From a virus, in the IMG/VR virus record IMGVR_UViG_3300045135_003334, positions 1 through 35,781 of that record: a DNA stretch of 35,781 nt; one strand, 5' to 3'. The notes beneath the pieces are model-generated. The model saw nothing but the letters and a program-made list of their open reading frames with translations. It had not been told where the DNA came from and searched no databases. This document shows positions 16,371 through 35,188 of this stretch, piece by piece. The position numbers and the translations under genes are program-made. How positions within the stretch are numbered: the first letter of the stretch is position 1; every line of letters begins with the position of its first letter.

Positions 16371-16398
16371 TTGACAAATTTCCAATAACTGTTATAAT
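16371..16398 (+). promoter_or_regulatory. consensus sigma70 promoter placing +1 at the UV endonuclease start codon
   Basis: TTGACA (16371-16376), 16-nt spacer, TATAAT (16393-16398). The usual +1, seven bases after the -10 box, is 16405, the A of the ATG. The -35 abuts the hairpin before it. No Shine-Dalgarno can exist in such a transcript. Confidence 0.82.
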
Positions 16399-16404
16399 AA
16401 GCAC

Positions 16405-17448
16405 ATGGTACAACGATTTGGTTTCTGTTGCAAATGGCTGAACTCCGAGAAAGAGTTTGGAGGTATGAAAGTCAACGCCAAGGACAGAGATCTCAATGGC
16501 AGATCAACCACAATGCGTTGGCTACGTGAACACCCACAAGATGCTGTGCAGAGACAGTGGGACATTATGAACCACAACGCCACGGCGGCACGTAAACTCG
16601 TGCAACGTGTTGGATCACTTCCACCAGAACGTAGGATGGTTCGTCTCGGTAGTGAGATGTTGCAAGGCTACACAGAAAAGGACTGGAAGTCTTGGTGGCA
16701 ACAACCACACATACAAGATCACTGTGAAAGACTGTTCGCACCCGTAGGCGAGATGGCACGAAGGCTAGACGTGAAAGTAAGTTTCCACCCTGGTCAGTTC
16801 TGCGTTTTATCAAGTGCCACTCCAGAAATAGTAGAGAGAAGCATAGAAGAATTTGAATACCATGCGGACATGGCCCGTTGGATGGGTTTCGGCAAAAGTT
16901 TCCAGGATGGATGCAAGATAAACGTACACATCTCAGGCAAACAAGGACCAGATGGAATACGTAAGGCTTTGCCTAGACTATCCCAAGAAGCACGTAACCT
17001 CATCACTATAGAAAATGACGAGATGGGTTGGGGACTGGACGCAAGTCTCGAACTGGAAAAGGATCTTGCACTTGTGATGGATATACATCACCACTGGATC
17101 AGAGACGAGGAATACATAGATGCAAACGATGACAGAGTCAAAAGGGTGATTGACAGTTGGCGTGGACAGAGGCCGAGTATGCACTATTCTTATTCTAGAG
17201 ATGAACACCTTGCAGTTGCAAACCTAGGCGACCGTACACACACTGAGATGCACAATATCAAGGATCTACTTGAACGTGGTTGCAAGAAACAAAAACTGAG
17301 AGCACACTCTGACCTGTTACCAAACAGGAAAGTCAATGATTGGGCATTATCATTCTCGGAAAACTTTGACATACAGGTAGAGGCCAAAGGTAAAAACATG
17401 GCCACAGAACAATTATATAGACAAGCAAAGGAAACTGCTGTAATATAG
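16405..17448 (+). CDS. uvsE: UV damage endonuclease (UvdE/UvsE family)
   Basis: This 347-residue TIM-barrel enzyme nicks DNA 5' to UV photoproducts, a repair route independent of UvrABC. Family motifs are in order: 'RFGFCCKW' (first strand), 'SFHPGQFCVLSS' with H128, 'KINVHISGKQGPDG', 'LITIENDEMGWG' with E203-N204-D205, 'LVMDIHHHW' with D226 and H228-H230, and 'MHYSYSRDEH'. These supply the metal-binding His/Asp/Glu set. The start at 16405 is needed because the first strand lies within ten residues of it; the next ATG would remove the strand. It heads an operon with the clamp loader. The fit is obvious for a phage of sunlit water. Confidence 0.92.
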   Translation: MVQRFGFCCKWLNSEKEFGGMKVNAKDRDLNGRSTTMRWLREHPQDAVQRQWDIMNHNATAARKLVQRVGSLPPERRMVRLGSEMLQGYTEKDWKSWWQQPHIQDHCERLFAPVGEMARRLDVKVSFHPGQFCVLSSATPEIVERSIEEFEYHADMARWMGFGKSFQDGCKINVHISGKQGPDGIRKALPRLSQEARNLITIENDEMGWGLDASLELEKDLALVMDIHHHWIRDEEYIDANDDRVKRVIDSWRGQRPSMHYSYSRDEHLAVANLGDRTHTEMHNIKDLLERGCKKQKLRAHSDLLPNRKVNDWALSFSENFDIQVEAKGKNMATEQLYRQAKETAVI

Positions 17449-17453
17449 CATTA

Positions 17454-17636
17454 ATGAAACACAGAAGACTTGTGAAAACTTGCACTTGGCAACTTCTAGG
17501 ATTAGGCTGGTTTATGAGTTATGCTTTGGTCACAGGAGGAGACCTCTGGTATACGTTTGGCCTTTCACTGGCGAGCATTCCTGCAGGAAGTGTGATGTTT
17601 TATGGTCACGAATGGATATGGGACAAAATTAAATGA
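17454..17636 (+). CDS. DUF2061 small membrane protein
   Basis: This 60-residue protein fits DUF2061: 'RLVKTCTWQLLGLGWFMSYA' opens with the 'vKt.tWr' motif, followed by 'VTGG' between two hydrophobic helices, and the C-terminal 'MFYGHEWIWDKIK' matches the family's 'yY.HeriW'. Two transmembrane helices are predicted (about residues 10-28 and 33-50). It starts 5 nt after the UV endonuclease stop and overlaps the clamp-loader start by four bases (ATGA). The function of the family is unknown to me; a replication link is suggested only by position. Confidence 0.8.
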   Translation: MKHRRLVKTCTWQLLGLGWFMSYALVTGGDLWYTFGLSLASIPAGSVMFYGHEWIWDKIK

Positions 17637-18559
17637 AAGATTTATGGGTAGAAAAATACAGACCTAAGACTCTGAAAGAGTACGTGGTCAGAGATGAGGC
17701 ACAACGTCAACAGATACAGTCATGGATAGACGACAAGGCGATTCCGCACTTGTTGTTGAGTGGTGCTCCGGGTGTTGGCAAGACAACACTAGCAAAAGTT
17801 CTGTTTGCAGAACTGGATGTCAGCAGTTATGACATACTTGAAATAAATGCTTCGAGGGAGAACAGTGTAGACACAGTCAGAGAGAAGATAAATTCATTCG
17901 TACAGATAATGCCTTTTGGAGCATACAAATATGTGTTGCTTGACGAAGCGGATTACATGAGTCCAAACGGACAGGCGGCTTTGCGTGGTGTGATGGAGAT
18001 GTATCACACGTCAGCGAGATTCATACTAACTTGCAACTATCCTAACAGGGTGATACCAGCACTGCATTCGAGGTGTCAAGGCTTCCATATGGAAACTATT
18101 GACAAAACAGAGTTCACCGCTAGGGCATGTGAGATATTGATACAGGAAGGTATAACACCAGACATAGAAATATTAGACACATACGTAAAAGCAAGTTATC
18201 CAGACATGAGGAAGTGTATCAACATGTTACAACAGAATTGCAGGGACGGAAAACTTATGCCACCAGCAAGTGGAGATTCAGGACAACAGGACTACAGACT
18301 GCAGATGGTGGACTTGTTTAAACAAGGAAAGATACAAGAAGCAAGGAAACTTGTATGTGCCCAAGCGAGACCAGAAGAATGTGAAGAGATATACAGATGG
18401 TTGTATGACAACTTGGAAATAATATCCAAAGACGAGGACGCACAGGACAAGGCGGTGCTAATTATCAAACAAGGATTGGTTGATCACAGTTTCGTAGCAG
18501 ACCCAGAGATCAATCTCGCAAGTGTTATGATTAAACTATCAAGACTATCCAATGGCTAA
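17633..18559 (+). CDS. 44: sliding-clamp loader ATPase subunit (T4 gp44-like)
   Basis: This 308-residue AAA+ protein is the large subunit of the T4-type clamp loader, which opens the sliding clamp and places it on primed DNA. Walker A is GAPGVGKT at residues 44-51, Walker B is LLDEAD at about 102-107, sensor 1 is 'ARFILTCNYPNRV', and the arginine finger is in 'LHSRCQGF'. The N-terminal 'LWVEKYRPKTLKEY' is the RFC-box signature. Length is close to T4 gp44 (319). It overlaps the upstream membrane-protein gene by four bases and the downstream oxygenase-like gene by eight. gp62, expected directly after it in T4, is not seen, nor are the clamp, regA or polymerase. Confidence 0.93.
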   Translation: MKDLWVEKYRPKTLKEYVVRDEAQRQQIQSWIDDKAIPHLLLSGAPGVGKTTLAKVLFAELDVSSYDILEINASRENSVDTVREKINSFVQIMPFGAYKYVLLDEADYMSPNGQAALRGVMEMYHTSARFILTCNYPNRVIPALHSRCQGFHMETIDKTEFTARACEILIQEGITPDIEILDTYVKASYPDMRKCINMLQQNCRDGKLMPPASGDSGQQDYRLQMVDLFKQGKIQEARKLVCAQARPEECEEIYRWLYDNLEIISKDEDAQDKAVLIIKQGLVDHSFVADPEINLASVMIKLSRLSNG

Positions 18560-19612: not shown

Positions 19613-19673
19613 CATAAGATTCCTCATAGGTTGTAGTTGATTGTGTTTCGATGTGTCTTTGATTAGGACTCAT
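19485..19673 (-). CDS. possible small acidic protein on minus strand
   Basis: This minus-strand frame gives 62 residues from the ATG at 19673 (or 64 from 19679): MSPNQRHIETQSTTTYEESY and then many E, D, T and Q residues. The composition is that of a small soluble, largely unstructured protein. No clear promoter or Shine-Dalgarno is visible before it. It occupies the gap between a plus-strand operon end at 19395 and a plus-strand late promoter at 19737. Confidence 0.35.
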   Translation of the reverse strand: MSPNQRHIETQSTTTYEESYAIDQQPTNATFIPKEIMETNEEKESVRQEGEIVHDESTLAED

Positions 19674-19736
19674 GTACAAATACTTACGATCTTTTTTCCA
19701 AATAAAGTATGCATATTTTACAACACAGATCTTTAA

Positions 19737-19744
19737 GATAAATA
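19737..19744 (+). promoter_or_regulatory. T4-type late promoter (GATAAATA)
   Basis: GATAAATA lies six bases before the ATG at 19751; the predicted +1 is 19750, one base from the start codon. No Shine-Dalgarno is present. Confidence 0.7.
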
Positions 19745-19750
19745 AGAACT

Positions 19751-20233
19751 ATGCATGACGTCTTAGACATAATCAAAAACGTACAATCGTTATACTCTGT
19801 AGGCCCTACTTTAGGTATTTTGAAAGACTTCGAAAGGGTGATCGACGAACTAGATGTGTACGTGTTCAAAAATTGGCAGGATGGTGAATTGCTGTCTGGA
19901 CCAATCGATTCTCGACACTTTGTCACATGTTCATTTATGTGGCCTATTGACAAAATGCCTGATCCCGCAGGAGGAAAACGATTGCTGGACAAAGGATGTA
20001 AGGTTACATATAAAAAAGACGAGTTATTAAAACCAAGAGAAATAAAATCTCCAGAAGACTACAGACCAGGAACAACAAAAGGCAAAATAGACGCTCACGA
20101 TATTTGGATAGTTGAAATAAGAATGCCAAAACAACTGATCGGCAACATGAAACACGGTCAAGATGAGATTGAAGTTCAAGATCAAACAGGTGAAGTCGTA
20201 AAAGACTTAGATACAGCAAATGATATTAGTTAA
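19751..20233 (+). CDS. hypothetical protein (160 aa), late gene
   Basis: This 160-residue soluble protein (starts MHDVLDIIKNVQSLYSVGPT) contains 'DELDVYVFKNWQDGELLSGP' and 'HFVTCSFMWPIDKMPDPAGG', and ends in an acidic tail. Its composition looks like a virion or DNA-metabolism protein, but I recognise no family. It sits behind a late promoter and overlaps the next gene by 14 nt, so the two probably form one unit made late in infection. A second ATG two codons in (19755) is in another frame and not an alternative. Confidence 0.7.
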   Translation: MHDVLDIIKNVQSLYSVGPTLGILKDFERVIDELDVYVFKNWQDGELLSGPIDSRHFVTCSFMWPIDKMPDPAGGKRLLDKGCKVTYKKDELLKPREIKSPEDYRPGTTKGKIDAHDIWIVEIRMPKQLIGNMKHGQDEIEVQDQTGEVVKDLDTANDIS

Positions 20234-20960: not shown

Positions 20961-22742
20961 TTAGAGTTTACTTACTGAAACCTTTAGAGAGTTTCTTCTT
21001 CTTTTAGCGTAACTATTATCAATTTCATTAAAATTACTATCGAAAATATAGGATACCAGACTAGATGATTTCATTTTGTTGTAATCAAATGCAAGTTCTT
21101 TTTTGATTGGATAGTTTGCATTTTCGTCGTGTATGCTGTGTTGTTGGAAAATAATTACGTCCTCGTTCGGAGAATCTAAAAAATCATTTAAGGTTTTTTT
21201 GCCTATTTTATATACCTCCTCCTTGTTTTGATAAAAGAACTCAAAACTTTTATTTTGCATCCATGCATGAGCAGACACTGTATCGGTGCTTTGGTTCCCT
21301 TTTAGATAGTATGTGATACTATCTTTTATAAATTTGTAATGTGCATTCAAAAGTTCAGACAATTTTATGTTCTCAATCAATCGGTCATAGAACTGTTGGA
21401 AACTGATATCATGGTTTCGAGCATATCTAGACAAAACTTGTGTATAGCCTCGTATATGAAACTGTACTATAACCCAACTATACATATAAGACTCTATCAT
21501 ATGATCGGTGCTCATTGTATTAGTTGCGGTCACGATGTCCATGTACTCTGGTATGTCGTCTGCTTCGTTGAAAATAAACATATAATCCTTTACTCGAGTA
21601 GTCTTCAGTCCATATTTTGTTATTGATTCTTCACTGGCCATCTCGCTGTTTTTTAAAATCTGTGTCAACCAAACATCAATACTATTATGTTGTCCTAACT
21701 CTAAAAGATCAGTTATTCCTTTTTTCCAACTTTCCAGTGTTTCATTAGGCATACCAAGTATAAGTTCGCTATAAGACCCTAATTGTGCTTCTTGAATACG
21801 TTCAAACATATCTCCTAGTTTGTTAATGGCCATGTTCTTTCTTTTGATCACGTCAAGAGTTTTATCACTCATACTCTGGACACTTAAAGTAATCCCCCTA
21901 CATAACCGTCCTAACGCTTTCGCGATTTCAATCACTACTGAATTACTGTTTTTTGTAAACTGAGCATTGACCGTATCTACCATACTGGTATCTAAATGTT
22001 GATGTAAGAGTTTAGCGATTGCAAGATCTCGCTCCTTGAAAATGCCAAAGTTTGCATCTGCTAGGAACACGTAAGATATGCGGTGATTTTTGATCCAAAG
22101 TATTTCCTCCTCTACTTTTATGAGGTCGTGTTGCTTTACTTTAGAGTTGATGAGGCTACCCCAATCACAAAAGGTACAAGAAAAAGGACAACCTCTATTT
22201 GTTTCGAAAGTCATCTGCCAGACAGCATTAGGATTGTTTTCGATTATCTTGTCAAATACGCCTGATGTATATGGACTAGGCAACTCTGATAAATCTGTTA
22301 TTCTTTCTGCTAGGTAAACTCTTTGTGTGTCTTTATGATGTTTCAATGAGTCCAAAATTTTTACAAAATTTTTTTCACCCTCGCCGAGTATTACGCTATC
22401 TATGAATTGATGTTCGTCCAATGTATTCCTGGTTATTTGTGGGCCTCCAAAAACTATTTTACAATCAGGGAACTTTCTTTTAATCCTTTCAGCAACTGTT
22501 AGACAGTATTGCTCATTCCACACATAACAACTGAATCCACAGATAGTCGGATTTTCCAACTTTTCAATTAGCGAATCAATATCTTCTCTGGCAAAGAATA
22601 AATCCTTAAGGACAAAGTTTTCCCTAACCCATTCAAACTGATTAGCATACGCCCAGATACAACCTACGCTGTACGGCAACCAATATTGAGTAGTGTTGTT
22701 GAAAAATATTTTGTATTGGGGTTGAAATAGGTACACATTCAT
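20961..22742 (-). CDS. B12-binding radical SAM enzyme
   Basis: This 593-residue protein has an N-terminal cobalamin-binding Rossmann domain (MNVYLFQPQY; 'KIVFGGPQIT'; 'VILGEGE') and a radical SAM barrel with the 4Fe-4S cysteines C185, C189 and C192 in 'NRGCPFSCTFCDWG'. 'YVFLADANFGIF', 'ITLSVQSMSDKTLDVIKRKN' and 'ELILGMPNETLESWKKGI' are further barrel strands. The C-terminal ~200 residues match nothing I can name. Members of this class carry out methylations and rearrangements on unactivated carbon; the substrate is unknown. I prefer the ATG at 22742, which overlaps the upstream stop as TAATG, over the ATG six codons earlier, because B12 domains normally begin right at this strand. Confidence 0.85.
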   Translation of the reverse strand: MNVYLFQPQYKIFFNNTTQYWLPYSVGCIWAYANQFEWVRENFVLKDLFFAREDIDSLIEKLENPTICGFSCYVWNEQYCLTVAERIKRKFPDCKIVFGGPQITRNTLDEHQFIDSVILGEGEKNFVKILDSLKHHKDTQRVYLAERITDLSELPSPYTSGVFDKIIENNPNAVWQMTFETNRGCPFSCTFCDWGSLINSKVKQHDLIKVEEEILWIKNHRISYVFLADANFGIFKERDLAIAKLLHQHLDTSMVDTVNAQFTKNSNSVVIEIAKALGRLCRGITLSVQSMSDKTLDVIKRKNMAINKLGDMFERIQEAQLGSYSELILGMPNETLESWKKGITDLLELGQHNSIDVWLTQILKNSEMASEESITKYGLKTTRVKDYMFIFNEADDIPEYMDIVTATNTMSTDHMIESYMYSWVIVQFHIRGYTQVLSRYARNHDISFQQFYDRLIENIKLSELLNAHYKFIKDSITYYLKGNQSTDTVSAHAWMQNKSFEFFYQNKEEVYKIGKKTLNDFLDSPNEDVIIFQQHSIHDENANYPIKKELAFDYNKMKSSSLVSYIFDSNFNEIDNSYAKRRRNSLKVSVSKL

Positions 22743-23656
22743 TACAGAATTTGTTTCCAAGCATTAATAGTGTAATCTAGACCGTCCTCTAAAGAAACAT
22801 TCGGTCTCCATCCTAAAGTTTCTGTAATAAGATTGTTATTTGAATTCAGCCAATATATTTCTCCAGGCCTCGCAGGTTTGGTGTTCCAGTTGACCTTGCC
22901 ATCCCAGTGTATTTTTTTACTAATCTTATTGACATAGTCTTTTATTTTGATAGGGTCATCAGGCCCTATTGTGAATATTTTACCATTATTACATTTTTCA
23001 TGGTTTTGTATAACAGTGTGCCACATGTTCATCATGTCATCTATAAAAATAAAGTTCCTATACGGTTCACCATAACCCAGGTTTATCTCATTTGGATTTT
23101 TGATCATTTGTGTGATTATTTGTTCTGTAACAAAAAAGTCATTGTCCTTTCTTCCATAACAGTTGGTTTGTCTCAAAGCGGTAAACGGTAGTCCTAAACT
23201 ACGATGTGCGTACTCAAGGTATTTCTCGCACCCATATTTTGCAACGGCATATGGTGCGTTTGGATTTGGTTGCGTGTTCTCATCAAAAGCAATAAATTTA
23301 CTTGGTATACCATTTTTTTGCACGTCATCAGATATGGGTTGCCATCCATATACCTCCATGGTACTTGCAAATACAAAGTTTTTGAAATTCCTCAATTTTG
23401 CCGCGGCTTCTATGAGGTTAACAGTGCCAACATAATTTATTTCGCTGAATGTGATCTGTTCGTAAAAACTTTTTTCTACTTCGGTCCTAGCGGCAAGGTG
23501 AACTATTATTTGAGGATCTATCGAACTTACTTCTTGATTTACTGCATCATGATCTAGTAGATCGCTTTTAAGATGATAAAGTTGGTAATTTTTTTCAAGA
23601 TCTGGAGTTAAATGCTGTCCTATAAAGCCAGAACTACCCGTGAGAAGCAATTTCAT
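22742..23656 (-). CDS. NAD-dependent sugar epimerase/dehydratase (extended SDR)
   Basis: This 304-residue extended short-chain dehydrogenase has the nucleotide-binding GSSGFIG at residues 7-13, 'IIVHLAARTEVEKSF' (the NAD-side HLAA motif), serine/threonine in 'FASTMEVYG', and the catalytic Y136-x3-K140 in 'YAVAKYG'. 'LRQTNCYGRKDN' and 'RNFIFIDDM' are typical of the UDP-glucose-4-epimerase/GDP-mannose-dehydratase group. It acts on a nucleotide sugar. The start is set at 23656, at 'MKLLLTGSSG', not at an upstream in-frame ATG at 23734, because the family begins here and a late promoter lies 5 nt before it. It is translationally coupled to the radical SAM gene. Confidence 0.88.
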   Translation of the reverse strand: MKLLLTGSSGFIGQHLTPDLEKNYQLYHLKSDLLDHDAVNQEVSSIDPQIIVHLAARTEVEKSFYEQITFSEINYVGTVNLIEAAAKLRNFKNFVFASTMEVYGWQPISDDVQKNGIPSKFIAFDENTQPNPNAPYAVAKYGCEKYLEYAHRSLGLPFTALRQTNCYGRKDNDFFVTEQIITQMIKNPNEINLGYGEPYRNFIFIDDMMNMWHTVIQNHEKCNNGKIFTIGPDDPIKIKDYVNKISKKIHWDGKVNWNTKPARPGEIYWLNSNNNLITETLGWRPNVSLEDGLDYTINAWKQIL

Positions 23657-23661
23657 ATCAA

Positions 23662-23669
23662 TATTTATA
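23662..23669 (-). promoter_or_regulatory. T4-type late promoter (TATAAATA), minus strand
   Basis: On the minus strand the sequence reads TATAAATA, a perfect late consensus. The predicted +1 six bases after its end is 23656, the A of the epimerase ATG. It is one half of a divergent promoter pair. Confidence 0.78.
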
Positions 23670-23683
23670 TGTGCGTATATTAT

Positions 23684-23691
23684 GATAAATA
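23684..23691 (+). promoter_or_regulatory. T4-type late promoter (GATAAATA)
   Basis: GATAAATA with predicted +1 at 23697, the A of the endolysin ATG. It faces away from the minus-strand promoter only 15 bases off. Confidence 0.75.
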
Positions 23692-23696
23692 GTTTT

Positions 23697-24158
23697 ATGC
23701 GACTAAGCACAAATTTTACACTAGCAGAATTCACAAAGAGTCAGACGGCAACTAGAAAAGGTCTGGACAACACGCCTGGCGCTGAACATCTTGAAAATGC
23801 AAAAGCACTTTTTACCAATGTTGTTCAAAAGGTAAGAGACAACTTTGGTGTCACAGTGATCAATTCTGGATACAGAGGTCCTGCGTTGAATGAAGCGGTG
23901 GGTGGCTCAAGTAAATCACAACACTGCAAAGGTGAGGCAGTTGACATAGAATGTCCAGGAACAGGAAATTATGATGTTGCAAAATGGATTTCAGAAAACT
24001 GTGATTTCGATCAACTGATATTGGAATTTTACACACCTGGCATACCTGATTCTGGTTGGGTACATGTTTCCTATAAATCTGAAGGAAATCGTAAAAGTAT
24101 TTTGACTGCTATGAAGGAAAATGGCAAGACTGTTTACAAGCCTGGTCTTATTGCCTAG
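23697..24158 (+). CDS. M15-family peptidase, probable endolysin
   Basis: This 153-residue zinc peptidase is of the D-Ala-D-Ala carboxypeptidase / L-Ala-D-Glu type. The zinc ligands are H76 and D83 in 'SQHCKGEAVDIE' and H123 in 'GWVHVSY'. 'FTLAEFTKSQTATRKGLDN' at the start and 'VINSGYRGPALNEAVGGSS' before the first ligand are typical. It would cut peptidoglycan stem peptides at lysis. The ATG at 23697 is chosen because the family's first helix starts here and the late promoter places +1 on it; an upstream in-frame GTG at 23640 would put the promoter inside the gene. There is no signal peptide, so a holin would be needed. The end overlaps the convergent gene by 11 nt. Confidence 0.88.
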   Translation: MRLSTNFTLAEFTKSQTATRKGLDNTPGAEHLENAKALFTNVVQKVRDNFGVTVINSGYRGPALNEAVGGSSKSQHCKGEAVDIECPGTGNYDVAKWISENCDFDQLILEFYTPGIPDSGWVHVSYKSEGNRKSILTAMKENGKTVYKPGLIA

Positions 24159-24648
24159 GTGCTATCCCGGTAATCTGTAAATTATATCTATGTTCGTTAC
24201 ATAAATTGGCCGCCATGTGCCAACTATCTTCGCTCCATCCAAAATAGTCTCCCGCAGAACCATAACACAATTCCTGATCTATCCAAAGTTGCTGTCCTGG
24301 GACACTGTCATGCAGGAACAAAATGATTCTAAAAACGGTTTCGTCCTTTTCTAGTTTGTTATGTTTACGATATGTTGTGTAGGTGTCTTTGTGCCATGGC
24401 AGATAAGAATTAAGATAGTATTTCTGTATCGCGTAAGACATGTTTCTAAGTTTCAATTTTGTAATGTTTTGCAAAATGTTTGCTGGTACATCTCGACAAG
24501 TTTCCAAAGGTGCCTTTTCCAATCGGTGTGAATCTCCTGACCTTAGAACAAATCCTCTGTTTGGATCAGGATGAGGTGTGTATGACAAGCCTTCATAATC
24601 ATTACTAATCCAAGTGACTGGTAATTTTCCTTTAATAATTTTCGCCAT
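24148..24648 (-). CDS. Fe(II)/2-oxoglutarate oxygenase-like protein 2
   Basis: This 166-residue protein has the beta-helix metal triad H86-K-D88 ('LPWHKDTY') and H144 ('DSWHMAANL'), with R154 following at the expected distance. 'FRIILFLHDSVPGQQLWIDQ' and 'AGDYFGWSEDSWH' are the strands in between. It resembles small hydroxylases that act on peptides, amino acids or nucleobases; I cannot tell which. It differs clearly from the 18552 protein. It is transcribed against the endolysin gene, with which it overlaps by 11 nt at the 3' ends. Confidence 0.7.
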   Translation of the reverse strand: MAKIIKGKLPVTWISNDYEGLSYTPHPDPNRGFVLRSGDSHRLEKAPLETCRDVPANILQNITKLKLRNMSYAIQKYYLNSYLPWHKDTYTTYRKHNKLEKDETVFRIILFLHDSVPGQQLWIDQELCYGSAGDYFGWSEDSWHMAANLCNEHRYNLQITGIAPRQ

Positions 24649-24654
24649 GAACGT

Positions 24655-24662
24655 TATTTAAT
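24655..24662 (-). promoter_or_regulatory. possible T4-type late promoter (ATTAAATA), minus strand
   Basis: The minus strand reads ATTAAATA, six of eight matches. The predicted +1 is 24649, one base before the ATG at 24648. It is weaker than its divergent partner at 24679. Confidence 0.5.
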
Positions 24663-24678
24663 CAGGGAAAAAACAGTC

Positions 24679-24686
24679 TATAAATA
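24679..24686 (+). promoter_or_regulatory. T4-type late promoter (TATAAATA)
   Basis: Perfect late consensus; the predicted +1 is 24692, the G of the GTG start of the aminotransferase-like gene. It supports that GTG as the true start. Confidence 0.82.
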
Positions 24687-24691
24687 TCTCC

Positions 24692-25279
24692 GTGTTTAAT
24701 CTCGTAGAAAAATTTGAATCAGAAATCGCGAAATATTATGGTAGTCCATACGCCGTGGCCACAGACTCATGCACCCACGCGATTGAATTGTGTTTGAGGT
24801 ATCAAAAAATATCTAACGCAACAACCCCAAAACACACCTACATTTCAATTCCGTTTACGTTTGAGAAATTGGACATTGAATGGGATTGGACTGACCAGGA
24901 ATGGAAAGATTATTACTTTATAGGAAACACAAACATTGTGGACGCGGCCGTCTTATGGAAAAAAGACGGGTACATTGAAAATACAATGATGTGCCTTAGT
25001 TTTCAGCACAAAAAACATCTCAAACTTGGTAGAGGTGGTATGATATTGTGCGATGACGGAAATGCCAGACAGGCATTGAAAAGAATGAGTTACGATGGAC
25101 GCAGTTTTGACTCGCCGTGGATGGAGCAAAACATCAAGACTTTAGGTTATCATTACTACATGACACCAGAAACAGCAAAAAATGGTCTGGACGTCTTGCC
25201 AGAAGCAAAAAGAACGACCCCTAGATCTTGGGATTGGAATGACTATCCTGACTTATCAAAAATGGATGTTTTTAAATGA
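24692..25279 (+). CDS. miniature DegT/DnrJ/EryC1-type aminotransferase
   Basis: This 195-residue protein keeps the core PLP signatures of the sugar aminotransferase family. 'YYGSPYAVATDSCTHAIELC' aligns with the usual 'HAVAV.SGT.AL'. D84 lies in 'NIVDAAVLWK' (the Asp that holds the PLP ring nitrogen). K108 in 'LSFQHKKHLKLGRGGMILCD' aligns with the PLP lysine of the 'FSFhptKn.ttGeGG' motif. Normal members are about 370 residues: here about 75 residues before the Asp and most of the C-terminal small domain are missing. The gene starts with GTG on a late promoter and overlaps the amidinotransferase gene by four bases. It may be active, may need a partner, or may be only a PLP-binding relic. Confidence 0.72.
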   Translation: MFNLVEKFESEIAKYYGSPYAVATDSCTHAIELCLRYQKISNATTPKHTYISIPFTFEKLDIEWDWTDQEWKDYYFIGNTNIVDAAVLWKKDGYIENTMMCLSFQHKKHLKLGRGGMILCDDGNARQALKRMSYDGRSFDSPWMEQNIKTLGYHYYMTPETAKNGLDVLPEAKRTTPRSWDWNDYPDLSKMDVFK

Positions 25280-26261: not shown

Positions 26262-26269
26262 TATAAATA
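26262..26269 (+). promoter_or_regulatory. T4-type late promoter (TATAAATA)
   Basis: Perfect late consensus in the 30-nt gap between the amidinotransferase and spanin-like genes. The predicted +1 is 26275, the A of the ATG. Confidence 0.82.
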
Positions 26270-28066: not shown

Positions 28067-28074
28067 AATAAATA
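28067..28074 (+). promoter_or_regulatory. T4-type late promoter (AATAAATA)
   Basis: AATAAATA lies just after the stop of the third oxygenase-like gene, with predicted +1 near 28080, three bases before the thermonuclease ATG. No Shine-Dalgarno is present. Confidence 0.6.
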
Positions 28075-28082: not shown

Positions 28083-28517
28083 ATGTGGACATATCGATGT
28101 AAAATCATAAGAGTGGTTGACGGGGACACTGTTGACGTTGATATCGATCTAGGATTCGGGATATGGCAGAAAAACGAACGTGTGAGGATCATGGGGATCG
28201 ACACGCCTGAATCAAGAACAAGAGACAAGGTAGAAAAGAAATTTGGACTTGCAAGTAAAGAACATTTGAAAACGTTGTTAGGTAAAGAATCGGTACTGCA
28301 AACCACAATTAACAAGAAAGGCGTGGACATGAAGGGTAAGTTTGGACGTGTGCTTGGAGATTTCATAATAGACAAGAAGAAAGTTTCAAAACTGCTTTGT
28401 GAGGCCGGACACGCTGTACCATATTTTGGCGGAAGCAAGAAAGACGTTGAAGCAAAACACATGGCAAATAGGCACAAATTAGTTGATGCAGGTGTTGTAG
28501 AAGGCCCATTAGAATAA
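28083..28517 (+). CDS. thermonuclease (SNase) family nuclease
   Basis: This 144-residue protein has the staphylococcal nuclease OB-fold signatures: 'IRVVDGDTVDVDIDLGFG' with the calcium-binding aspartates, 'RVRIMGIDTPESR' with the catalytic arginine, and 'KFGRVLGDF' with the second arginine. The middle glutamate of the classic site is not clear to me. It has no signal peptide, so it acts inside the infected cell, perhaps in host DNA degradation. The late promoter before it argues for a late role. Similar small nucleases are common in marine T4-like phages. Confidence 0.85.
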   Translation: MWTYRCKIIRVVDGDTVDVDIDLGFGIWQKNERVRIMGIDTPESRTRDKVEKKFGLASKEHLKTLLGKESVLQTTINKKGVDMKGKFGRVLGDFIIDKKKVSKLLCEAGHAVPYFGGSKKDVEAKHMANRHKLVDAGVVEGPLE

Positions 28518-28520
28518 ATA
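28513..28520 (+). promoter_or_regulatory. T4-type late promoter (AATAAATA)
   Basis: AATAAATA overlaps the thermonuclease stop codon. The predicted +1 near 28526 gives a 16-nt leader with GAGGAG at 28532-28537 before the ATG at 28542. Confidence 0.7.
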
Positions 28521-28541: not shown

Positions 28542-29132
28542 ATGGAACTAATAATAACGTTAGCAATGAAATTTTGGCAGTGGACTATATTAATCGCTGT
28601 TGTGATCTTAGCCGCTATTTTCAATGCTTTAGACAAAAGAAAAAAACCTAATTTAAAATTCAACTTCAAAGGAATGCCGAAGTTACAACCTGTGCCGATC
28701 AAGACCAAAGGTAAAGGATTCTGGAAAGGAATCATAATGTGGTTGTTATCTACAAGAAACTGGGTGCTGACAGATGACTGGAAGTACAACATAGACGGAA
28801 AAGAATATGTGATACCAGCGGGATTCCAATTTGATGGTGCAAGTATTCCTAAGTTCCTAAGAACGTTCTTCTCTCCAGTTGGTGTTTTGTTAATGGGCGG
28901 TCTTGTACACGACTACGCATACAAATACAAAACACTTTTAGAAGTAAACAAGAAGAAAACAATGGGTGAGTTGACTCAGAAGAGAGCGGACGAGATATTC
29001 AGAGACATCAACATCATCGTGAACGGTTTCTATGCTATGAACTACCTGGCGTACTGGTCATTGAGAATCGGTGGCTTCGTTGCTTGGAACGGACACAGAA
29101 AAAGAGACGCTAAGATACCGGGGATAAAATAA
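28542..29132 (+). CDS. DUF1353 protein with N-terminal membrane anchor
   Basis: This 196-residue protein starts with a transmembrane helix (about residues 12-30, 'QWTILIAVVILAAIFNAL') and a basic stretch. The DUF1353 domain follows (about 70-180): 'YVIPAGFQFDGASIPKFLRT' and 'MGGLVHDYAYKY', which fit the family pattern 'vP.Gf.tDgaSiP' and 'iHDyly'. The family is frequent in phages near lysis genes, with unknown activity. It overlaps the following holin-like gene by one base (TAATG), so the two are coupled. It has a good Shine-Dalgarno and a late promoter. Confidence 0.82.
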   Translation: MELIITLAMKFWQWTILIAVVILAAIFNALDKRKKPNLKFNFKGMPKLQPVPIKTKGKGFWKGIIMWLLSTRNWVLTDDWKYNIDGKEYVIPAGFQFDGASIPKFLRTFFSPVGVLLMGGLVHDYAYKYKTLLEVNKKKTMGELTQKRADEIFRDINIIVNGFYAMNYLAYWSLRIGGFVAWNGHRKRDAKIPGIK

Positions 29133-29485: not shown

Positions 29486-29495
29486 TTACCACACA

Positions 29496-29523
29496 TTGAC
29501 AGATAACCGATCTGTTGTATAAT
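29496..29523 (+). promoter_or_regulatory. consensus sigma70 promoter for the DnaJ-ClpA operon
   Basis: TTGACA (29496-29501), 16-nt spacer, TATAAT (29518-29523). The predicted +1 is 29530, one base before the ATG of dnaJ at 29531. There is no room for a Shine-Dalgarno. Confidence 0.82.
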
Positions 29524-29530
29524 AAGCATA

Positions 29531-30391
29531 ATGAAAAATTATTATGACGTCCTAGGTGTGTCCGAAGATGCCTCCAACGAACAGATAAAGAAAGCATTCA
29601 AAGAGATCGCAAAAAAAGAACATCCGGATAGAGGTGGAGACGAGGCAAAATTTAAAGAAGCGAACGAAGCCTATGACACTTTGAAAGATTCGCAAAAAAG
29701 ACACGACTATGACACCATGCGAAAGTTTGGTGGTTCAATGCCGGGAGGCGGACAACATCCGTTCTTCAACGAAGACATATTTGGAGATTTCTTTTCAGGC
29801 TTTGGTAACGGTGACACTGATTTCAAATTCAATTTCACACAAGGTCCTGGACGTGCCCGTACATTCCGTACTCAGAGACGAGGCAATAGGAATGTTCAAG
29901 TAAGAATGGCTCTAAGTATTAAAGAAGTCATGACTCAAAACGAGAAGACTATCAATTACAAACTACCTAGTGGCAGAGATGAATTTGCCACTGTCAAAAT
30001 ACCTGCGGGTGTACAGCACGGTGTCACCTTCAAATTTGAAGGCATGGGAGATGATGCTATAAAGAATGTGCCACGTGGAGATCTGTTGGTAGTGATGAGT
30101 GTGTTGGACTCCGACGGGTACACACGAAAGGGGAACGACCTTTACACAGATAAAACCATAGACTGTTTCCAAGCAATACGTGGACATGAATTTAATCTCA
30201 AGACCCTGGAAGATAAAATAATTAAAGTTAAAGTGCCAGCAGGCACACAACCTAACACTGTATTGCAAGTGAAGGGACAGGGAATGCCAGTGCATAAAAC
30301 AATCGGTATTAGAGGCAACCTATATGTAAAAGTGCATGTGCTTATACCACAATTAAGTGCCTCTGATTTGAAAAAAATTAAAGATTTATGA
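29531..30391 (+). CDS. dnaJ: DnaJ/CbpA-type Hsp40 co-chaperone
   Basis: This 286-residue protein begins with a J domain (residues 1-65: 'MKNYYDVLGVSEDASNEQIK', HPD at 31-33), which stimulates host DnaK. A glycine/phenylalanine-rich linker (about 70-105: 'FGGSMPGGGQHPFFNEDIFG') and two C-terminal client-binding domains follow ('INYKLPSGRDEFATVKIPAG', 'RGDLLVVM', 'KIIKVKVPAGTQPNTVLQVK'). The cysteine-rich zinc domain is missing, so it is closer to CbpA than to DnaJ. It is the first gene of an operon reading into deformylase and ClpA. The likely job is to direct host DnaK to phage proteins. Confidence 0.92.
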   Translation: MKNYYDVLGVSEDASNEQIKKAFKEIAKKEHPDRGGDEAKFKEANEAYDTLKDSQKRHDYDTMRKFGGSMPGGGQHPFFNEDIFGDFFSGFGNGDTDFKFNFTQGPGRARTFRTQRRGNRNVQVRMALSIKEVMTQNEKTINYKLPSGRDEFATVKIPAGVQHGVTFKFEGMGDDAIKNVPRGDLLVVMSVLDSDGYTRKGNDLYTDKTIDCFQAIRGHEFNLKTLEDKIIKVKVPAGTQPNTVLQVKGQGMPVHKTIGIRGNLYVKVHVLIPQLSASDLKKIKDL

Positions 30392-30624
30392 GAACAAAAA
30401 AGAAATACATACACGTCAATCAACACGTAATACGTGCTAACAAGAAAAATGGCAACAACGATCCTGTAATCACTATCAAACAGGGTAGCAAGAACACCTA
30501 TTGTCATGAAGTTCAAATCAACGGACCAAGCAAGGTCATTTACGGAGGCAACGACAAACCATTGCTTTCTTGTGGTGCAAGGGTCGTAATCGAAACAGAA
30601 GCGGACATAGAGATAGTTAAATGA
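30388..30624 (+). CDS. hypothetical protein (78 aa)
   Basis: This is a small basic beta-rich protein (starts MRTKKKYIHVNQHVIRANKK; then 'DPVITIKQGSKNTYCHEVQI'). It overlaps dnaJ and the deformylase gene by four bases each (ATGA type), so it is part of the operon. No family is recognised. The repeated short strands suggest a small beta-barrel. Confidence 0.7.
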   Translation: MRTKKKYIHVNQHVIRANKKNGNNDPVITIKQGSKNTYCHEVQINGPSKVIYGGNDKPLLSCGARVVIETEADIEIVK

Positions 30625-31115
30625 TACAAGTATTCCAATATCCACACGAAACACTACTTCAGTCAAGCACAGAATGGACAAAAAATGACAGCATACAAGG
30701 TTATAATGATATCGAAAAATTTGAGGCGGATATGATAAAATCCATGTTGGATGAACGTGGAATGGGCCTCGCGGCCAACCAGATAGGCATTACCAAAAGA
30801 TTTTTTGCAATCGGGCACGAGTCATTTGACACATTTCAAAAACATGTTATAATTTGGAATCCACAGGTGATAAATTTTAGTGAAGAGAAAGTCATTGACG
30901 TGGAAGGATGTCTGAGTTTCAAGGATATCTTTGTAAAAGTTGAAAGACCAAAAGTAATTGAAGTAAAATATGAAACAACACAAGGCAAAACAAAATTCGC
31001 AAGACTCGATGGCATGGAGTCCAAGTGCTTCCAGCATGAACTGGATCACCTTGACGGTATTACATTTAATAAAAGAGTCTCTAAAATTAGATGGCAAATG
31101 GCAAACAAAGGATAA
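30621..31115 (+). CDS. def: peptide deformylase
   Basis: This 164-residue metalloenzyme removes the formyl group from new proteins. All three motifs are present: 'GMGLAANQIG' (residues 47-56), 'EGCLSF' with metal ligand C97, and 'QHELDHLDG' with H139, E140 and H143. Length is normal for bacterial deformylases. The gene is coupled to the 78-residue gene before it and lies 3 nt before clpA. Marine phages often carry deformylase genes, perhaps to process host photosystem or phage proteins; pairing with an unfoldase suggests a protein-quality role here. Confidence 0.94.
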   Translation: MIQVFQYPHETLLQSSTEWTKNDSIQGYNDIEKFEADMIKSMLDERGMGLAANQIGITKRFFAIGHESFDTFQKHVIIWNPQVINFSEEKVIDVEGCLSFKDIFVKVERPKVIEVKYETTQGKTKFARLDGMESKCFQHELDHLDGITFNKRVSKIRWQMANKG

Positions 31116-31118
31116 TAA

Positions 31119-33455
31119 ATGTTAGAAGCAAACGAAGGACTAGAAAACATATTTGAAAATGCAGTAAAAGAAGCAGAGAAGAGAAGGCACGAGTATGTGA
31201 CTATCGAGCATGTTTTGTTATCTCTGATTACTGACCAAAGTATAGGGACCATATTACACGATTTTAAAGTACAGGTGGGGGCATTGATAAAAGATGTTCA
31301 AGATTACTTAGACACCAAATGCAATGACATCATTGCAAAAGGCAAAGAGCCCATGACTCCACGTAAAACTGCAAGTTTAGAAAGGTTAATGAATAGGGCG
31401 TTTACACAGGCACTTTTCCAAGGCAGGCAGGATGTAAGTTCTGTAGATATTCTCATATCAATATTCGCTGAGAAGAAAAGTTATGCGGCATTCTTCTTGA
31501 AGAAGCATCAGGTCAACAAACAAGACTTGATGGATTTAGTTTCAACAGAAACAATACTAGATGAGGGGATGGCTGGACTGGGAGGACCTGAGCAGGGTGG
31601 ACCGGAACAGAGATTAAGACCAAATCAAGCAGATCGTATCTTAAAAAGTTATTGCGAGAATTTGAATCAAAAATATTTTGATAAAAAGATAGATCCTGTG
31701 ATAGGTCGAGATCAAGAGACAGATGATCTTAAACAAATTTTGGCAAGGAGAAACAAAAATAATGTCCTAATCGTAGGAGACCCTGGAGTAGGTAAAACAG
31801 CGGTAGTAGAAGGGTTGGCGAGAAGGATAGCCAAGAACAAAGGTGATATACCAGAGTATCTCAAAGATCACATAGTATGGAGCCTTGACGTCAACAGTTT
31901 GATTGCTGGAAGTAAATTTAGAGGTGACTTCGAAGAGAGATTAAAACTTGTAGTGAACGCTCTCGATCAAAAAGGCAAGTCAATATTATTCATAGACGAA
32001 GCACACATGATAGTGGGTGCAGGAGCCACGGGCCAGGGCAACAACATGGACATGGCAAACATGTTGAAACCAGCACTTTTGAAAGGTACAATCAAAGTTG
32101 TTGCTTCCACCACGTGGGAAGAATACAGGAAGTATTTTGAAAAGGACCGTGCTCTTATGAGGAGATTCCAGAGACTCCAAGTCGGGGAACCATCTAAGGA
32201 CACAGCAGTGAAAATCTTAAAAGGCGTGAAACAATACTACGAAACATTTCATAAGTGTAAAATAACAGACGAGGCTTGTGAGGACGCAGTAGACTATTCG
32301 ACTAAATTTATAGCAGATAAAAAACTACCGGACAAAGCGATAGACGTGATAGACGTGGCATGTGCAAGGCTAAGACTGAACGGCATCAAAGATGGTAAAA
32401 TTGATCATGACGAAATCATACATGAGATATCGGTAATGACAGGTATCAGCATAGAACAACTGTCTCAAAAACAGGCGAGCAATTTGAAAACCCTTGAAGA
32501 GAAAATGAAACTACAGGTATTTGGACAAGACAAGGCAATAAACACGATCACCGACAAGATATTGGTTGCTCGAGCAGGACTGAAAAGTTTAACTAAACCT
32601 GTGGGCTCGTTCCTTTTCTTAGGTCCTACAGGTTGCGGTAAGACCGAAACTGCTAAACAATTGGCAAAAACATTGGGAGTAGAACTGATTAGATTTGATA
32701 TGTCAGAGTATCAGGAAAAACATTCAATTGCTAAATTGATAGGTTCTCCTCCTGGCTACGTAGGCTACGAGGATTCTAACATGGGTGGAGGTATGTTTAT
32801 CAATGAGGTTGAAAAACATCCACACGCAGTTGTGTTGTTCGACGAGGTTGAAAAAGCACACAGAGACGTATCAAACATGTTATTGCAAGTGATGGATTAT
32901 GGTACAGTGACAGGCTCCAATGGGAAGAAAGCAGATTGTAGAAACATCACTTTGATAATGACATCTAATTTGGGTGCAGAAGAGAATGAAAGAAACAATA
33001 TAGGATTTGGAAAAAGCGAGAGAACAGGTGAGGATGATAAGGCACTTAAAAAATTCTTTCCGCCCGAGTTTAGGAACAGACTCGACGCTGTGATCAAGTT
33101 TGATAAACTTGCTAAAGAAACAATGCGTTCAATAGTTAAAAAATTCCTACAAGAACTTAACACAATGACAATAGAAAAAGATGTTGAGGTAAATGCAACA
33201 GATGACGCAATTGACTTTTTAATGACCAAAGGATTTGACGCTAAACTTGGTGCAAGGCCATTGCAGAGAGTTATAGACGACGAGATAAAGAAACCTCTAT
33301 CTAAAATGATGTTGTTTGGTGAACTAACTGCTGGAGGCATGGTTGAAGTTGGCGTGTCCACGGACATCGTACCTAAACTTACTGTAAAATTCAAAGCAGG
33401 AAAACCAAAGAAGATAGATGTAAAATCGGAAGTCTCTGATGAGAAAACATCATAA
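31119..33455 (+). CDS. clpA: ClpA-like AAA+ unfoldase
   Basis: This 778-residue protein has the Clp N domain (about 1-145) and two AAA+ modules: Walker A1 GDPGVGKT at 220-227 and Walker A2 GPTGCGKT at 502-509, with Walker B 'LFIDEAH' and 'VLFDEVEKAH'. The 282-residue spacing of the two sites matches E. coli ClpA (about 281) and leaves no room for the ClpB middle domain. 'NNIGFGKSE' (I628-G629-F630) sits where ClpA has its IGL loop, which docks on ClpP; this predicts use of host ClpP. No clpP or clpS is in the window. The start at 31119 is 3 nt after the deformylase stop. Confidence 0.9.
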   Translation: MLEANEGLENIFENAVKEAEKRRHEYVTIEHVLLSLITDQSIGTILHDFKVQVGALIKDVQDYLDTKCNDIIAKGKEPMTPRKTASLERLMNRAFTQALFQGRQDVSSVDILISIFAEKKSYAAFFLKKHQVNKQDLMDLVSTETILDEGMAGLGGPEQGGPEQRLRPNQADRILKSYCENLNQKYFDKKIDPVIGRDQETDDLKQILARRNKNNVLIVGDPGVGKTAVVEGLARRIAKNKGDIPEYLKDHIVWSLDVNSLIAGSKFRGDFEERLKLVVNALDQKGKSILFIDEAHMIVGAGATGQGNNMDMANMLKPALLKGTIKVVASTTWEEYRKYFEKDRALMRRFQRLQVGEPSKDTAVKILKGVKQYYETFHKCKITDEACEDAVDYSTKFIADKKLPDKAIDVIDVACARLRLNGIKDGKIDHDEIIHEISVMTGISIEQLSQKQASNLKTLEEKMKLQVFGQDKAINTITDKILVARAGLKSLTKPVGSFLFLGPTGCGKTETAKQLAKTLGVELIRFDMSEYQEKHSIAKLIGSPPGYVGYEDSNMGGGMFINEVEKHPHAVVLFDEVEKAHRDVSNMLLQVMDYGTVTGSNGKKADCRNITLIMTSNLGAEENERNNIGFGKSERTGEDDKALKKFFPPEFRNRLDAVIKFDKLAKETMRSIVKKFLQELNTMTIEKDVEVNATDDAIDFLMTKGFDAKLGARPLQRVIDDEIKKPLSKMMLFGELTAGGMVEVGVSTDIVPKLTVKFKAGKPKKIDVKSEVSDEKTS

Positions 33456-34080: not shown

Positions 34081-34348
34081 CAAGATATTCAATGATCAAA
34101 GCATTGTTGAAAGCATGATACAAAAGAACTGGATGGGCTCTCCGGTAATCAAAAGAAGTCTACTAAGGGTCCGACAAGTAAGCGAAGATCATTGTGTGTG
34201 CGAGGAACTAGGCGAATCTGATGGTAAAGCATACAAGATAAAATACATCAACATACTGACCGTAGATGGCCAAGAACCCAACGAACTCGCCGCTGTGTAC
34301 GGACTGGGTCCGAAAACAGCAAGATTCAAAAGAAAAAATACTGAATAA
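34052..34348 (+). CDS. hypothetical protein (98 aa)
   Basis: This small protein (starts MEAIKKLRDNKIFNDQSIVE) has a helical start and a beta-rich middle ('LLRVRQVSEDHCVCEELGES', 'KAYKIKYINILTVDGQEPNE'). It ends in the basic tail 'LGPKTARFKRKNTE'. No family is recognised. It overlaps the upstream gene by 29 nt. Its stop codon lies inside the late promoter of the next gene. Confidence 0.65.
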   Translation: MEAIKKLRDNKIFNDQSIVESMIQKNWMGSPVIKRSLLRVRQVSEDHCVCEELGESDGKAYKIKYINILTVDGQEPNELAAVYGLGPKTARFKRKNTE

Positions 34349-34351
34349 ATA
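34344..34351 (+). promoter_or_regulatory. T4-type late promoter (AATAAATA)
   Basis: AATAAATA, overlapping the stop of the gene before; the predicted +1 is 34357, the A of the next ATG. Confidence 0.75.
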
Positions 34352-34356
34352 TAACG

Positions 34357-34932
34357 ATGGCACAGAAAAGCACCACACTACTAGCGTCAAAATCGCACCT
34401 AGCAAACGTATCTGGAACAGATATCAGTTTCACTGCCACTGGTTCGGAGTACAAGATATCTTCGACAAGCACAAGTTTGTCTGGATTCAACGTGAGAGAT
34501 CTGATCACAGTCACAGGCACCACAAACAATAACAGCACATTCACTGTGAAGTCCGAAGTGTCTGCAAATGAACTTATCGTTGAAGAAGTGGTTACAACAG
34601 AAACAGCAGACGGGTCAACGACATACACATTAGATCACACAGGTTTTGTAAGTGACAAAGCAAAAGGTGATGGCTACTACCAACAACCAGATGGCGTACA
34701 CACAGTTGCGTATCAGGTCAATTCAACAATGACAGGATCAATCAAGATGCAGGGATCACTTGCCACAACGCCAACAGAAGATGATTGGTTTGACATAAGT
34801 GGTACAACATTCACGGCAGACCAAAGCACTTTGATCTCCACTGCCAACTTTACTGGGAACTTTGTTTGGATACGTGCAAAAGCCACGTCAGTCACGGCAG
34901 GAACTATAAGTTCTATTTTGAGCAACTCATAA
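34357..34932 (+). CDS. probable structural protein (191 aa)
   Basis: This threonine/serine-rich beta protein resembles the virion proteins at the other end of the window in composition. The N-terminal half has 'GTDISFTATGSEYKISSTST' and 'VRDLITVTGTTNNNSTFTVK'; the second half has 'QQPDGVHTVAYQVNSTMTGS' and 'IKMQGSLATTPTEDDWFDIS', a pattern I know from small marine phage structural proteins. A late promoter fits this. The exact place in the virion is unknown. Confidence 0.7.
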   Translation: MAQKSTTLLASKSHLANVSGTDISFTATGSEYKISSTSTSLSGFNVRDLITVTGTTNNNSTFTVKSEVSANELIVEEVVTTETADGSTTYTLDHTGFVSDKAKGDGYYQQPDGVHTVAYQVNSTMTGSIKMQGSLATTPTEDDWFDISGTTFTADQSTLISTANFTGNFVWIRAKATSVTAGTISSILSNS

Positions 34933-34971
34933 AAGTCGCACTACTACTAGATTCTAGCAAGATCAACTTGG

Positions 34972-34999
34972 TTGACATATACGTAATCTGTAGTACAAT
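34972..34999 (+). promoter_or_regulatory. sigma70 promoter placing +1 at the next start codon
   Basis: TTGACA (34972-34977), 16-nt spacer, TACAAT (34994-34999, one mismatch). The usual +1 is 35006, the A of the ATG of the small membrane protein. Confidence 0.75.
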
Positions 35000-35005
35000 A
35001 ATTAA

Positions 35006-35188
35006 ATGACAGATAATGAAATAGAAAATATACAAACAGTAGACGTAAAAGTCACAGCAGAATCAATAGATGCCCACGTGGAATGTCTCAGACAAAATGG
35101 TTACAAGGTTGAAAAACACACTACTTCGTGGACAAAATACATCCTAGCATTTTTATTCGGTGGATACATAATTGGGGTGCTTTTGTAA
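35006..35188 (+). CDS. small membrane protein (60 aa)
   Basis: The N-terminal 40 residues of this 60-residue protein are polar (MTDNEIENIQTVDVKVTAES), and a single C-terminal transmembrane helix (about 43-60, 'KYILAFLFGGYIIGVLL') ends at the stop, so it is a tail-anchored-like layout. It has its own sigma70 promoter, which predicts early or host-type expression. No family is recognised. Confidence 0.65.
   Translation: MTDNEIENIQTVDVKVTAESIDAHVECLRQNGYKVEKHTTSWTKYILAFLFGGYIIGVLL

What the first reader, a model, noticed from the sequence alone, without database searches (positions are those of the whole stretch)
16371..35008. Predicted transcription starts cluster on the start codon: systematic leaderless genes from two promoter classes
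Applying the standard offsets (sigma70 +1 seven bases after TATAAT; T4 late +1 six bases after TATAAATA), +1 falls exactly on the first base of the start codon at 16405, 23656(-), 23697, 24692, 26275, 34357 and 35006. It falls one base away at 19751, 29531 and 24648(-), three at 28083 and four at 2067 (weakest promoter). The other recognised promoters (7914, 9784, 15917, 28542) give leaders of 16-20 nt, all with a Shine-Dalgarno. None is in between. Two promoter types, both strands and one GTG start follow the same rule, so chance is unlikely. It suggests two translation classes, leaderless and SD-led, perhaps with different timing or ribosome use.
Basis: partly seen in the sequence, partly recalled or inferred. 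Interest (0 to 1): 0.85.

Follow-up and report, generated by a model that had tools for sequence, protein, structure and literature searches.

The report
Leaderless genes in marine T4-related phages
In an uncultured group of ocean viruses related to phage T4, and separately in a phage of the abundant bacterium Pelagibacter, many promoters sit so close to the gene that the messenger RNA should begin at or within three bases of the start codon, with no room for a ribosome-binding site; textbook T4 and its better-known relatives do not do this.

Summary
In the window, 6 of 11 ATAAATA late motifs lie 5-8 nt before an ATG, or 7 counting one GTG. Three of the four near-perfect sigma70 promoters that precede a likely gene start are 6-7 nt before an ATG.

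The pattern is lineage-specific. Late motif 5-8 nt versus 16-40 nt from the start: 46 versus 32 genes in six window-clade records, 18 versus 17 in four HTVC008M-like records, but 5 versus 191 in T4, KVP40, three cyanophages, PA5oct and Atu_ph07. Sigma70 promoters shift only in the window clade: 43 of 80 sites versus 8 of 162 (p=1e-17). A polymerase tree forces at least two changes of the trait. Orthologs keep the spacing while flanking bases diverge, and codons just after most of these ATGs vary synonymously.

Best explanation: RNA polymerase with sigma70 or a gp55-type late sigma starts at, or 1-3 nt before, the A of AUG, giving leaderless mRNAs beside a Shine-Dalgarno-led class. Transcript ends are inferred, not mapped. 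Timing and special ribosomes are unsupported.

The parts
16371..16398 (+). sigma70 promoter TTGACA-N16-TATAAT; N6 then ATG 16405 (uvdE): leader 0
   Evidence: orthologs keep a sigma70-type promoter at the same distance
16405..17448 (+). UvdE-like UV endonuclease, leaderless start
   Evidence: Pfam PF03851 1e-30
29496..29523 (+). sigma70 promoter TTGACA-N16-TATAAT; N7 then ATG 29531 (dnaJ): leader 1
29531..30391 (+). DnaJ-like co-chaperone, leaderless start
   Evidence: Pfam PF01556/PF00226; codons 2-8 differ 30 synonymous, 20 non-synonymous among orthologs
34972..34999 (+). sigma70 promoter TTGACA-N16-TACAAT; N6 then ATG 35006: leader 0
23662..23668 (-). late motif ATAAATA (TATAAATA); N5 then ATG 23656 (-): leader 0
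   Evidence: orthologs L008 and L014 keep it
22742..23656 (-). nucleotide-sugar epimerase, leaderless start; divergent from 23697
   Evidence: Pfam PF01370/PF16363
23685..23691 (+). late motif ATAAATA; N5 then ATG 23697: leader 0. Shares the 40-bp divergent gap 23657-23696 with the promoter of 23656(-)
23697..24158 (+). M15 peptidase endolysin, leaderless start
   Evidence: Pfam PF08291, phrog_894; codons 2-8 differ 81 synonymous, 30 non-synonymous
24680..24686 (+). late motif (TATAAATA); N5 then GTG 24692: leader 0; least certain exact case (GTG start, no conserved orthologous start)
24655..24661 (-). degenerate late motif TTAAATA; N6 then ATG 24648 (-): leader 1; weak
26263..26269 (+). late motif ATAAATA; N5 then ATG 26275 (spanin): leader 0
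   Evidence: most listed orthologs keep the motif at 5-8 nt
34345..34351 (+). late motif ATAAATA overlapping the stop codon of the upstream gene; N5 then ATG 34357: leader 0
   Evidence: all 12 distinct orthologs keep it at 6-7 nt
19738..19744 (+). late motif ATAAATA; N6 then ATG 19751: leader 1
   Evidence: most of 23 distinct orthologs keep NTAAATA at 6-10 nt
28068..28074 (+). late motif ATAAATA; N8 then ATG 28083: leader 3; orthologs mostly SD-led, a likely class switch
2051..2057 (+). weak CTAAATA; N9 then ATG 2067: not conserved
28514..28520 (+). late motif, 21 nt before ATG 28542, with GAGGAG: SD-led contrast, conserved as such
9756..9762 (+). late motif, 21 nt before ATG 9784, with AAGGAG: SD-led contrast, conserved in 4 of 4 orthologs
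7883..7889 (+). late motif, 24 nt before ATG 7914, with AAGGA: SD-led contrast
15862..15890 (+). sigma70 promoter TTGACA-N17-TATAAT, 26 nt before ATG 15917 (rubrerythrin-like), with AAAGGAG: SD-led contrast

Best explanation
These are promoters of a T4-superfamily phage placed so that transcription begins at the A of the start codon or 1-3 nt before it. Host-type sigma70 holoenzyme (uvdE, dnaJ, g35006; presumably early) and RNA polymerase with a gp55-type late sigma (lysis and virion genes) both do this. The resulting leaderless or near-leaderless mRNAs lack any Shine-Dalgarno and would be initiated by direct recognition of the 5'-terminal AUG. A second class of genes keeps the ordinary 16-20-nt SD leader. 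The architecture arose or was fixed in the marine window clade and, for late promoters, in the HTVC008M-like Pelagibacter phages. It is absent in T4, KVP40, cyanophages, PA5oct and Atu_ph07. A likely benefit is compaction: promoter and start fit in a gap of about 13 nt. Shown: spacing, its conservation, lineage restriction, coding from the first codon, presence of a gp55 gene in the clade. Inferred: +1 positions, leaderless translation, benefit.
For: Spacing verified. Only ATAAATA among its 21 anagrams is concentrated at 5-8 nt (219 per 1000 occurrences; the next, overlapping shifted forms, 42 and 38). Near-empty at 0-4 nt and a dip at 9-15 nt. Lineage contrast: window clade 46 vs 32, HTVC008M-like 18 vs 17, seven leadered phages 5 vs 191; single genomes are enough (G005 p=1e-9, HTVC008M p=5e-10). 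Sigma70 sites: 43/80 vs 8/162, p=1e-17; in 80 loci the first start lies at 6, 7, 8 nt in 35, 18, 12 distinct sites. All nine ATAAATA-N5-ATG sites of HTVC008M are annotated CDS starts. Ortholog upstreams diverge but keep promoter and spacing, while SD-led genes keep their own spacing. Synonymous excess in codons 2-8 for most genes. gp55 homolog in G005, E=2e-58. SD in 73% of the 16-45-nt class. Median gap to the upstream same-strand gene 13 vs 34 nt. Tree: at least two changes forced.
Against: No transcript 5' ends are available. The +1 offset for the late promoter is taken from T4. Many genes could also be read from upstream transcripts and translated without SD. The absence of SD in the 5-8 class is partly built in, since the motif fills that space. 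Hosts of the window clade are unknown, and two marine bacterial MAGs show only a weak -10 excess at 5-7 nt. One exact case starts with GTG, a poor leaderless start in E. coli (established knowledge). For g35006 and the spanin the codon test shows no clear excess. Window-clade genomes are close to each other, so pooled p values overstate independence.
Confidence: 0.83

Rival explanations
1. The start codons are misassigned: translation begins at a downstream ATG with a normal SD-led leader, so the promoters are ordinary.
For: Some genes have further in-frame ATGs 20-30 nt downstream (26275).
Against: Orthologous starts coincide, and codons 2-8 differ largely by synonymous changes in endolysin (81:30), g19751 (38:13), dnaJ (30:20), g34357 (22:15), epimerase (8:2) and uvdE (17:14) against about 0.2 synonymous expected for random single changes. 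HTVC008M's independent annotation starts at all nine ATGs.
Confidence: 0.05
2. ATAAATA near the ATG is an A/T-rich translation-initiation element or compositional by-product, not a promoter.
For: A+T-rich start regions are common and promote SD-free initiation (established knowledge).
Against: Anagrams of the motif are far less enriched. The same spacing is seen with full TTGACA-N16/17-TATAAT promoters, including the -35 hexamer. The motif is the known T4-type late promoter and also appears at 16-40 nt before SD-led genes of the same genomes. Divergent gene pairs leave only about 40 bp for two promoters.
Confidence: 0.05
3. Most of these genes are translated mainly from longer upstream polycistronic transcripts; the leaderless mRNA is minor and the spacing reflects only packing of promoters into short gaps.
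For: 59 of 69 leaderless late genes follow a same-strand neighbour with a median gap of 13 nt.
Against: Packing alone would not stop sharply at 0 nt or leave the dip at 9-15 nt. Ten of the 69 are divergent and have no same-strand gene directly upstream to read through from.
Confidence: 0.2

Closest known systems
Leaderless (TA-led) genes of bacteria, e.g. Deinococcus-Thermus and Actinobacteria (Zheng 2011, PMC3160421)
   Same: -10 element about 10-12 bp before the start codon, no SD; read as leaderless mRNA.
   Different: Here in a lytic T4-superfamily phage, from both host-type sigma70 and phage late promoters. That survey found leaderless genes in only 2 of 117 alphaproteobacterial genomes.
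T4-type late promoters (TATAAATA, gp55 sigma)
   Same: Same motif; gp55 homolog present in the clade.
   Different: In T4, KVP40, cyanophages, PA5oct and Atu_ph07 the motif lies 16-40 nt before the gene start (5 of 201 called genes at 5-8).
Pelagibacter phage HTVC008M and other pelagimyophages (PMC7029224)
   Same: HTVC008M shows the same late spacing: 10 genes at 5-8 nt versus 6 at 16-40.
   Different: Distant in core genes (TerL 31%, polymerase 25%) and not enriched for sigma70 leaderless starts. The pelagimyophage survey reported that late-promoter detection failed; the passages found there do not describe leaderless starts.
Pseudomonas phage PA5oct (Arenbergviridae)
   Same: Best cultured match by terminase, 56% identity.
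   Different: Conventional leaders: 1 gene at 5-8 nt versus 31 at 16-40.
Leaderless transcripts mapped in the alphaproteobacterium Sinorhizobium meliloti (PMC3616915)
   Same: Primary 5' ends at the AUG, 171 mapped.
   Different: A cellular genome and a small minority of its mapped starts; here about half of recognisable phage promoters.

Membership tests
Leaderless gene (leader 0 to about 3 nt, no SD, AUG-dependent) | Promoter placed so +1 falls at or within a few nt of the start codon | tested here: met
Leaderless gene (leader 0 to about 3 nt, no SD, AUG-dependent) | No Shine-Dalgarno | tested here: met
   0 of 69, partly by construction
Leaderless gene (leader 0 to about 3 nt, no SD, AUG-dependent) | AUG as start codon | tested here: met
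   67 of 69 late, 33 of 34 TATAAT cases; window 24692 is GTG
Leaderless gene (leader 0 to about 3 nt, no SD, AUG-dependent) | Mapped primary 5' end at the AUG | not testable with these tools
   no transcript data held
T4-type late promoter | TATAAATA-like motif before late (lysis, virion) genes | tested here: met
T4-type late promoter | gp55 late sigma encoded by the phage | tested here: met
   found in clade member G005; the window itself is a fragment without it
T4-type late promoter | gp45 clamp and gp33 co-activator | tested here: inconclusive
   no hit in window-clade records with HTVC008M-seeded profiles; PA5oct and Atu_ph07 also gave none; a clamp-loader-like AAA protein is at 17633-18559
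T4-type late promoter | SD-led leader of about 10-30 nt, as in T4 and cyanophages | tested here: not met
   about half of called genes with the motif are at 5-8 nt in this clade

The most novel reading that the evidence does not exclude
Two distant T4-superfamily lineages in the ocean have independently moved much of their gene expression to leaderless mRNAs, because their hosts' ribosomes, or ribosomes altered during infection, favour 5'-terminal AUGs, so leaderless initiation is an adaptive viral strategy rather than only genome packing.
Probability: 0.25. Interest if true: 0.8.

Novelty: new variant of a known kind. Interest (0 to 1): 0.6.

Why it matters
Start-site and promoter prediction for abundant marine phages has assumed T4-like leaders with Shine-Dalgarno sites; a pelagimyophage survey reported that late-promoter detection failed (PMC7029224). 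A late promoter that abuts the start codon may be one reason, and it gives a simple search rule (NTAAATA-N5-8-ATG). It also supplies a cultured system (HTVC008M on Pelagibacter) in which leaderless translation of viral late genes can be tested, and an apparent repeated gain of leaderless architecture to correlate with host.

Tried and rejected
Phage-encoded bS21 as the cause: found in HTVC008M, Melnitz, G014 and G018 but not in the strongly leaderless window-clade records, so it does not track the trait. IF3 or S1-domain genes: none in the leaderless records; IF3 occurs in the jumbo phages Atu_ph07 and Phosso, of which Atu_ph07 has conventional leaders and Phosso few motif-start pairs. Host already leaderless: a Pelagibacter MAG and MED657 show only a weak excess; those MAGs were reached through phage contigs binned into them, so they are not evidence of the host. 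PA5oct looked promising in a raw ATAAATA-N5-ATG count but the matches are mostly not at called gene starts. Nucleotide search of phage records gave no match. The library held no paper matching the Syn9 transcription-start search; the transcript map I recall (Doron 2016) could not be read. No Rfam family and no tRNA in the window. No structure prediction was run; it would not bear on the question.
Full report
What the window is. It is a 35.8-kb linear virus record. Its genes include tail-fibre and baseplate proteins, a tail assembly chaperone, endolysin, spanin, UvdE, DnaJ, ClpA and peptide deformylase. The tail assembly chaperone is 64% identical to Pelagibacter phage HTVC008M. However, clade members with longer records (G005, 196.6 kb; G001, G004, G011, G017) are as distant from HTVC008M in core genes as T4 is (terminase 31%, capsid 35%, polymerase 25%). 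The best cultured terminase match is the Pseudomonas jumbo phage PA5oct at 56%. The window therefore belongs to an uncultured marine branch of the T4 superfamily on the PA5oct side (tree).

The observation. reproduces all listed sequences and offsets. An unbiased listing of every NTAAATA in the window and every sigma70 site with at least 11 of 12 matches adds few others. One perfect sigma70 site lies inside the peptide deformylase gene (30826-30853), and other near-consensus sites (1393, 13615) have no likely gene start nearby. Four listed cases are weak: 24692 (GTG, no conserved orthologs), 24648(-) and 2067 (degenerate, unconserved motifs), and 28083 (orthologs mostly SD-led).

Is it more than chance? 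In dinucleotide shuffles of upstream regions the late motif appears at 5-8 nt 0.07 times per window on average, against 4 observed in called genes. Across relatives, ATAAATA stands far above its 20 other anagrams at 5-8 nt. Positions 0-4 are nearly empty, as expected if transcripts must include the AUG, and 9-15 nt is a dip. Counts at leader lengths 0, 1, 2, 3 are 32, 17, 10, 9 distinct cases. So the class is '0-3 nt', which matches the usual range of RNA polymerase start-site choice (established knowledge), rather than strictly 0.

Lineage contrast. Called genes with the late motif at 5-8 versus 16-40 nt: window clade 46 versus 32; HTVC008M, G007, G008 and G020 18 versus 17; Melnitz and G014 5 versus 27; PA5oct 1 versus 31; Atu_ph07 3 versus 45; three cyanophages 1 versus 74; T4 and KVP40 0 versus 41. 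Clade genomes are close relatives, so I also tested them singly: G005 p=1.3e-9, HTVC008M p=5.1e-10, the window alone p=6e-5. Sigma70 promoters with at least 11 of 12 matches: 43 of 80 with a nearby start lie at 5-8 nt in the window clade, against 8 of 162 in the seven leadered phages. This sigma70 effect is not significant in the HTVC008M-like phages. On a polymerase tree the leaderless label needs two changes, both forced by well-supported branches.

Conservation. In orthologs of uvdE, g35006 and dnaJ the -35, spacer length, -10 and 5-8-nt distance persist while the flanking bases change; spanin, g34357 and g19751 do the same with NTAAATA, mostly at 5-8 nt. In parallel the tail chaperone and g9784 keep an approximately 20-nt leader with GAGGAG or AAGGAG. 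Each gene thus tends to keep its own class, though some genes switch (28083, endolysin). Codons 2-8 differ with a clear excess of synonymous changes in six of the eight leaderless genes tested; the spanin and g35006 are not clear. This argues against misplaced starts. All nine ATAAATA-N5-ATG sites in HTVC008M coincide with its deposited CDS starts.

How it most likely works. Shown: promoters of two kinds abut start codons; a gp55-type late sigma is encoded in the clade (G005, E=2e-58); the leaderless late genes have no SD and almost always AUG; and they sit a median 13 nt from the upstream same-strand gene, versus 34 nt for SD-led late genes. In the window the motif before 34357 even overlaps the upstream stop codon. 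Inferred: transcription starts at the A of AUG or up to 3 nt before it, ribosomes bind the 5'-terminal AUG directly, and compaction is the benefit. No ribosomal or initiation-factor gene tested tracks the trait.

What is known. Leaderless genes with a -10 element just before the start are well described in bacteria (PMC3160421) and mapped in an alphaproteobacterium (PMC3616915). T4-type late promoters are described for cyanophages (PMC2984593), Melnitz (PMC9004378) and phage CBB (PMC5259590). The pelagimyophage survey says its late-promoter search was unsuccessful (PMC7029224). In the passages found in these papers, and in the full-text searches, I saw no report of leaderless late genes in T4-superfamily phages. 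The library is incomplete, so this is not proof of novelty. The AR9 paper remarks in general terms that phage transcripts are 'often leaderless' (PMC5312081), so leaderlessness in phages as such is not new.

Limits. No transcript ends, unknown host for the window clade, mechanical gene calls in all genomes except the HTVC008M annotation check, and related genomes within the clade.

Noticed in passing
window 28542-29132; G005 core genes: The tail assembly chaperone (DUF1353-like) is about 64% identical to HTVC008M although terminase, capsid and polymerase are only 25-35%, suggesting gene exchange between distant marine T4-superfamily lineages.
   Followed up: partly
G005 (L122-L131), G001, G004, G011, G017: An apparently undescribed marine branch of T4-superfamily phages whose best cultured terminase match is the Pseudomonas jumbo phage PA5oct (56%).
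   Followed up: partly
window 29531-33455: Cluster of chaperone, protease and maturation genes: DnaJ, a short ORF, peptide deformylase, ClpA; the ClpA gene has close copies in relatives.
   Followed up: no
window 30826-30853: A perfect TTGACA-N16-TATAAT lies inside the peptide deformylase coding sequence with no suitable ATG after it; possibly chance or an internal promoter toward clpA.
   Followed up: no
window 15917-16339: Rubrerythrin-like protein (PF02915), with the one SD-led near-consensus sigma70 promoter that precedes a likely gene.
   Followed up: no
window 20961-25279: B12-binding radical SAM protein (20961-22760, -) beside a nucleotide-sugar epimerase and a short DegT-like aminotransferase fragment (24692-25279), a small cargo block on mixed strands.
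   Followed up: no
L204, L205, L207: Contigs of this phage group are binned into bacterial MAGs labelled Pelagibacter, Rickettsiales and Verrucomicrobia in GTDB: probably contamination, not host evidence.
   Followed up: partly
W09 (Atu_ph07) 256-501(-), W10 (Phosso) 382560-382817: Two jumbo phages of alphaproteobacteria encode translation initiation factor IF3.
   Followed up: no
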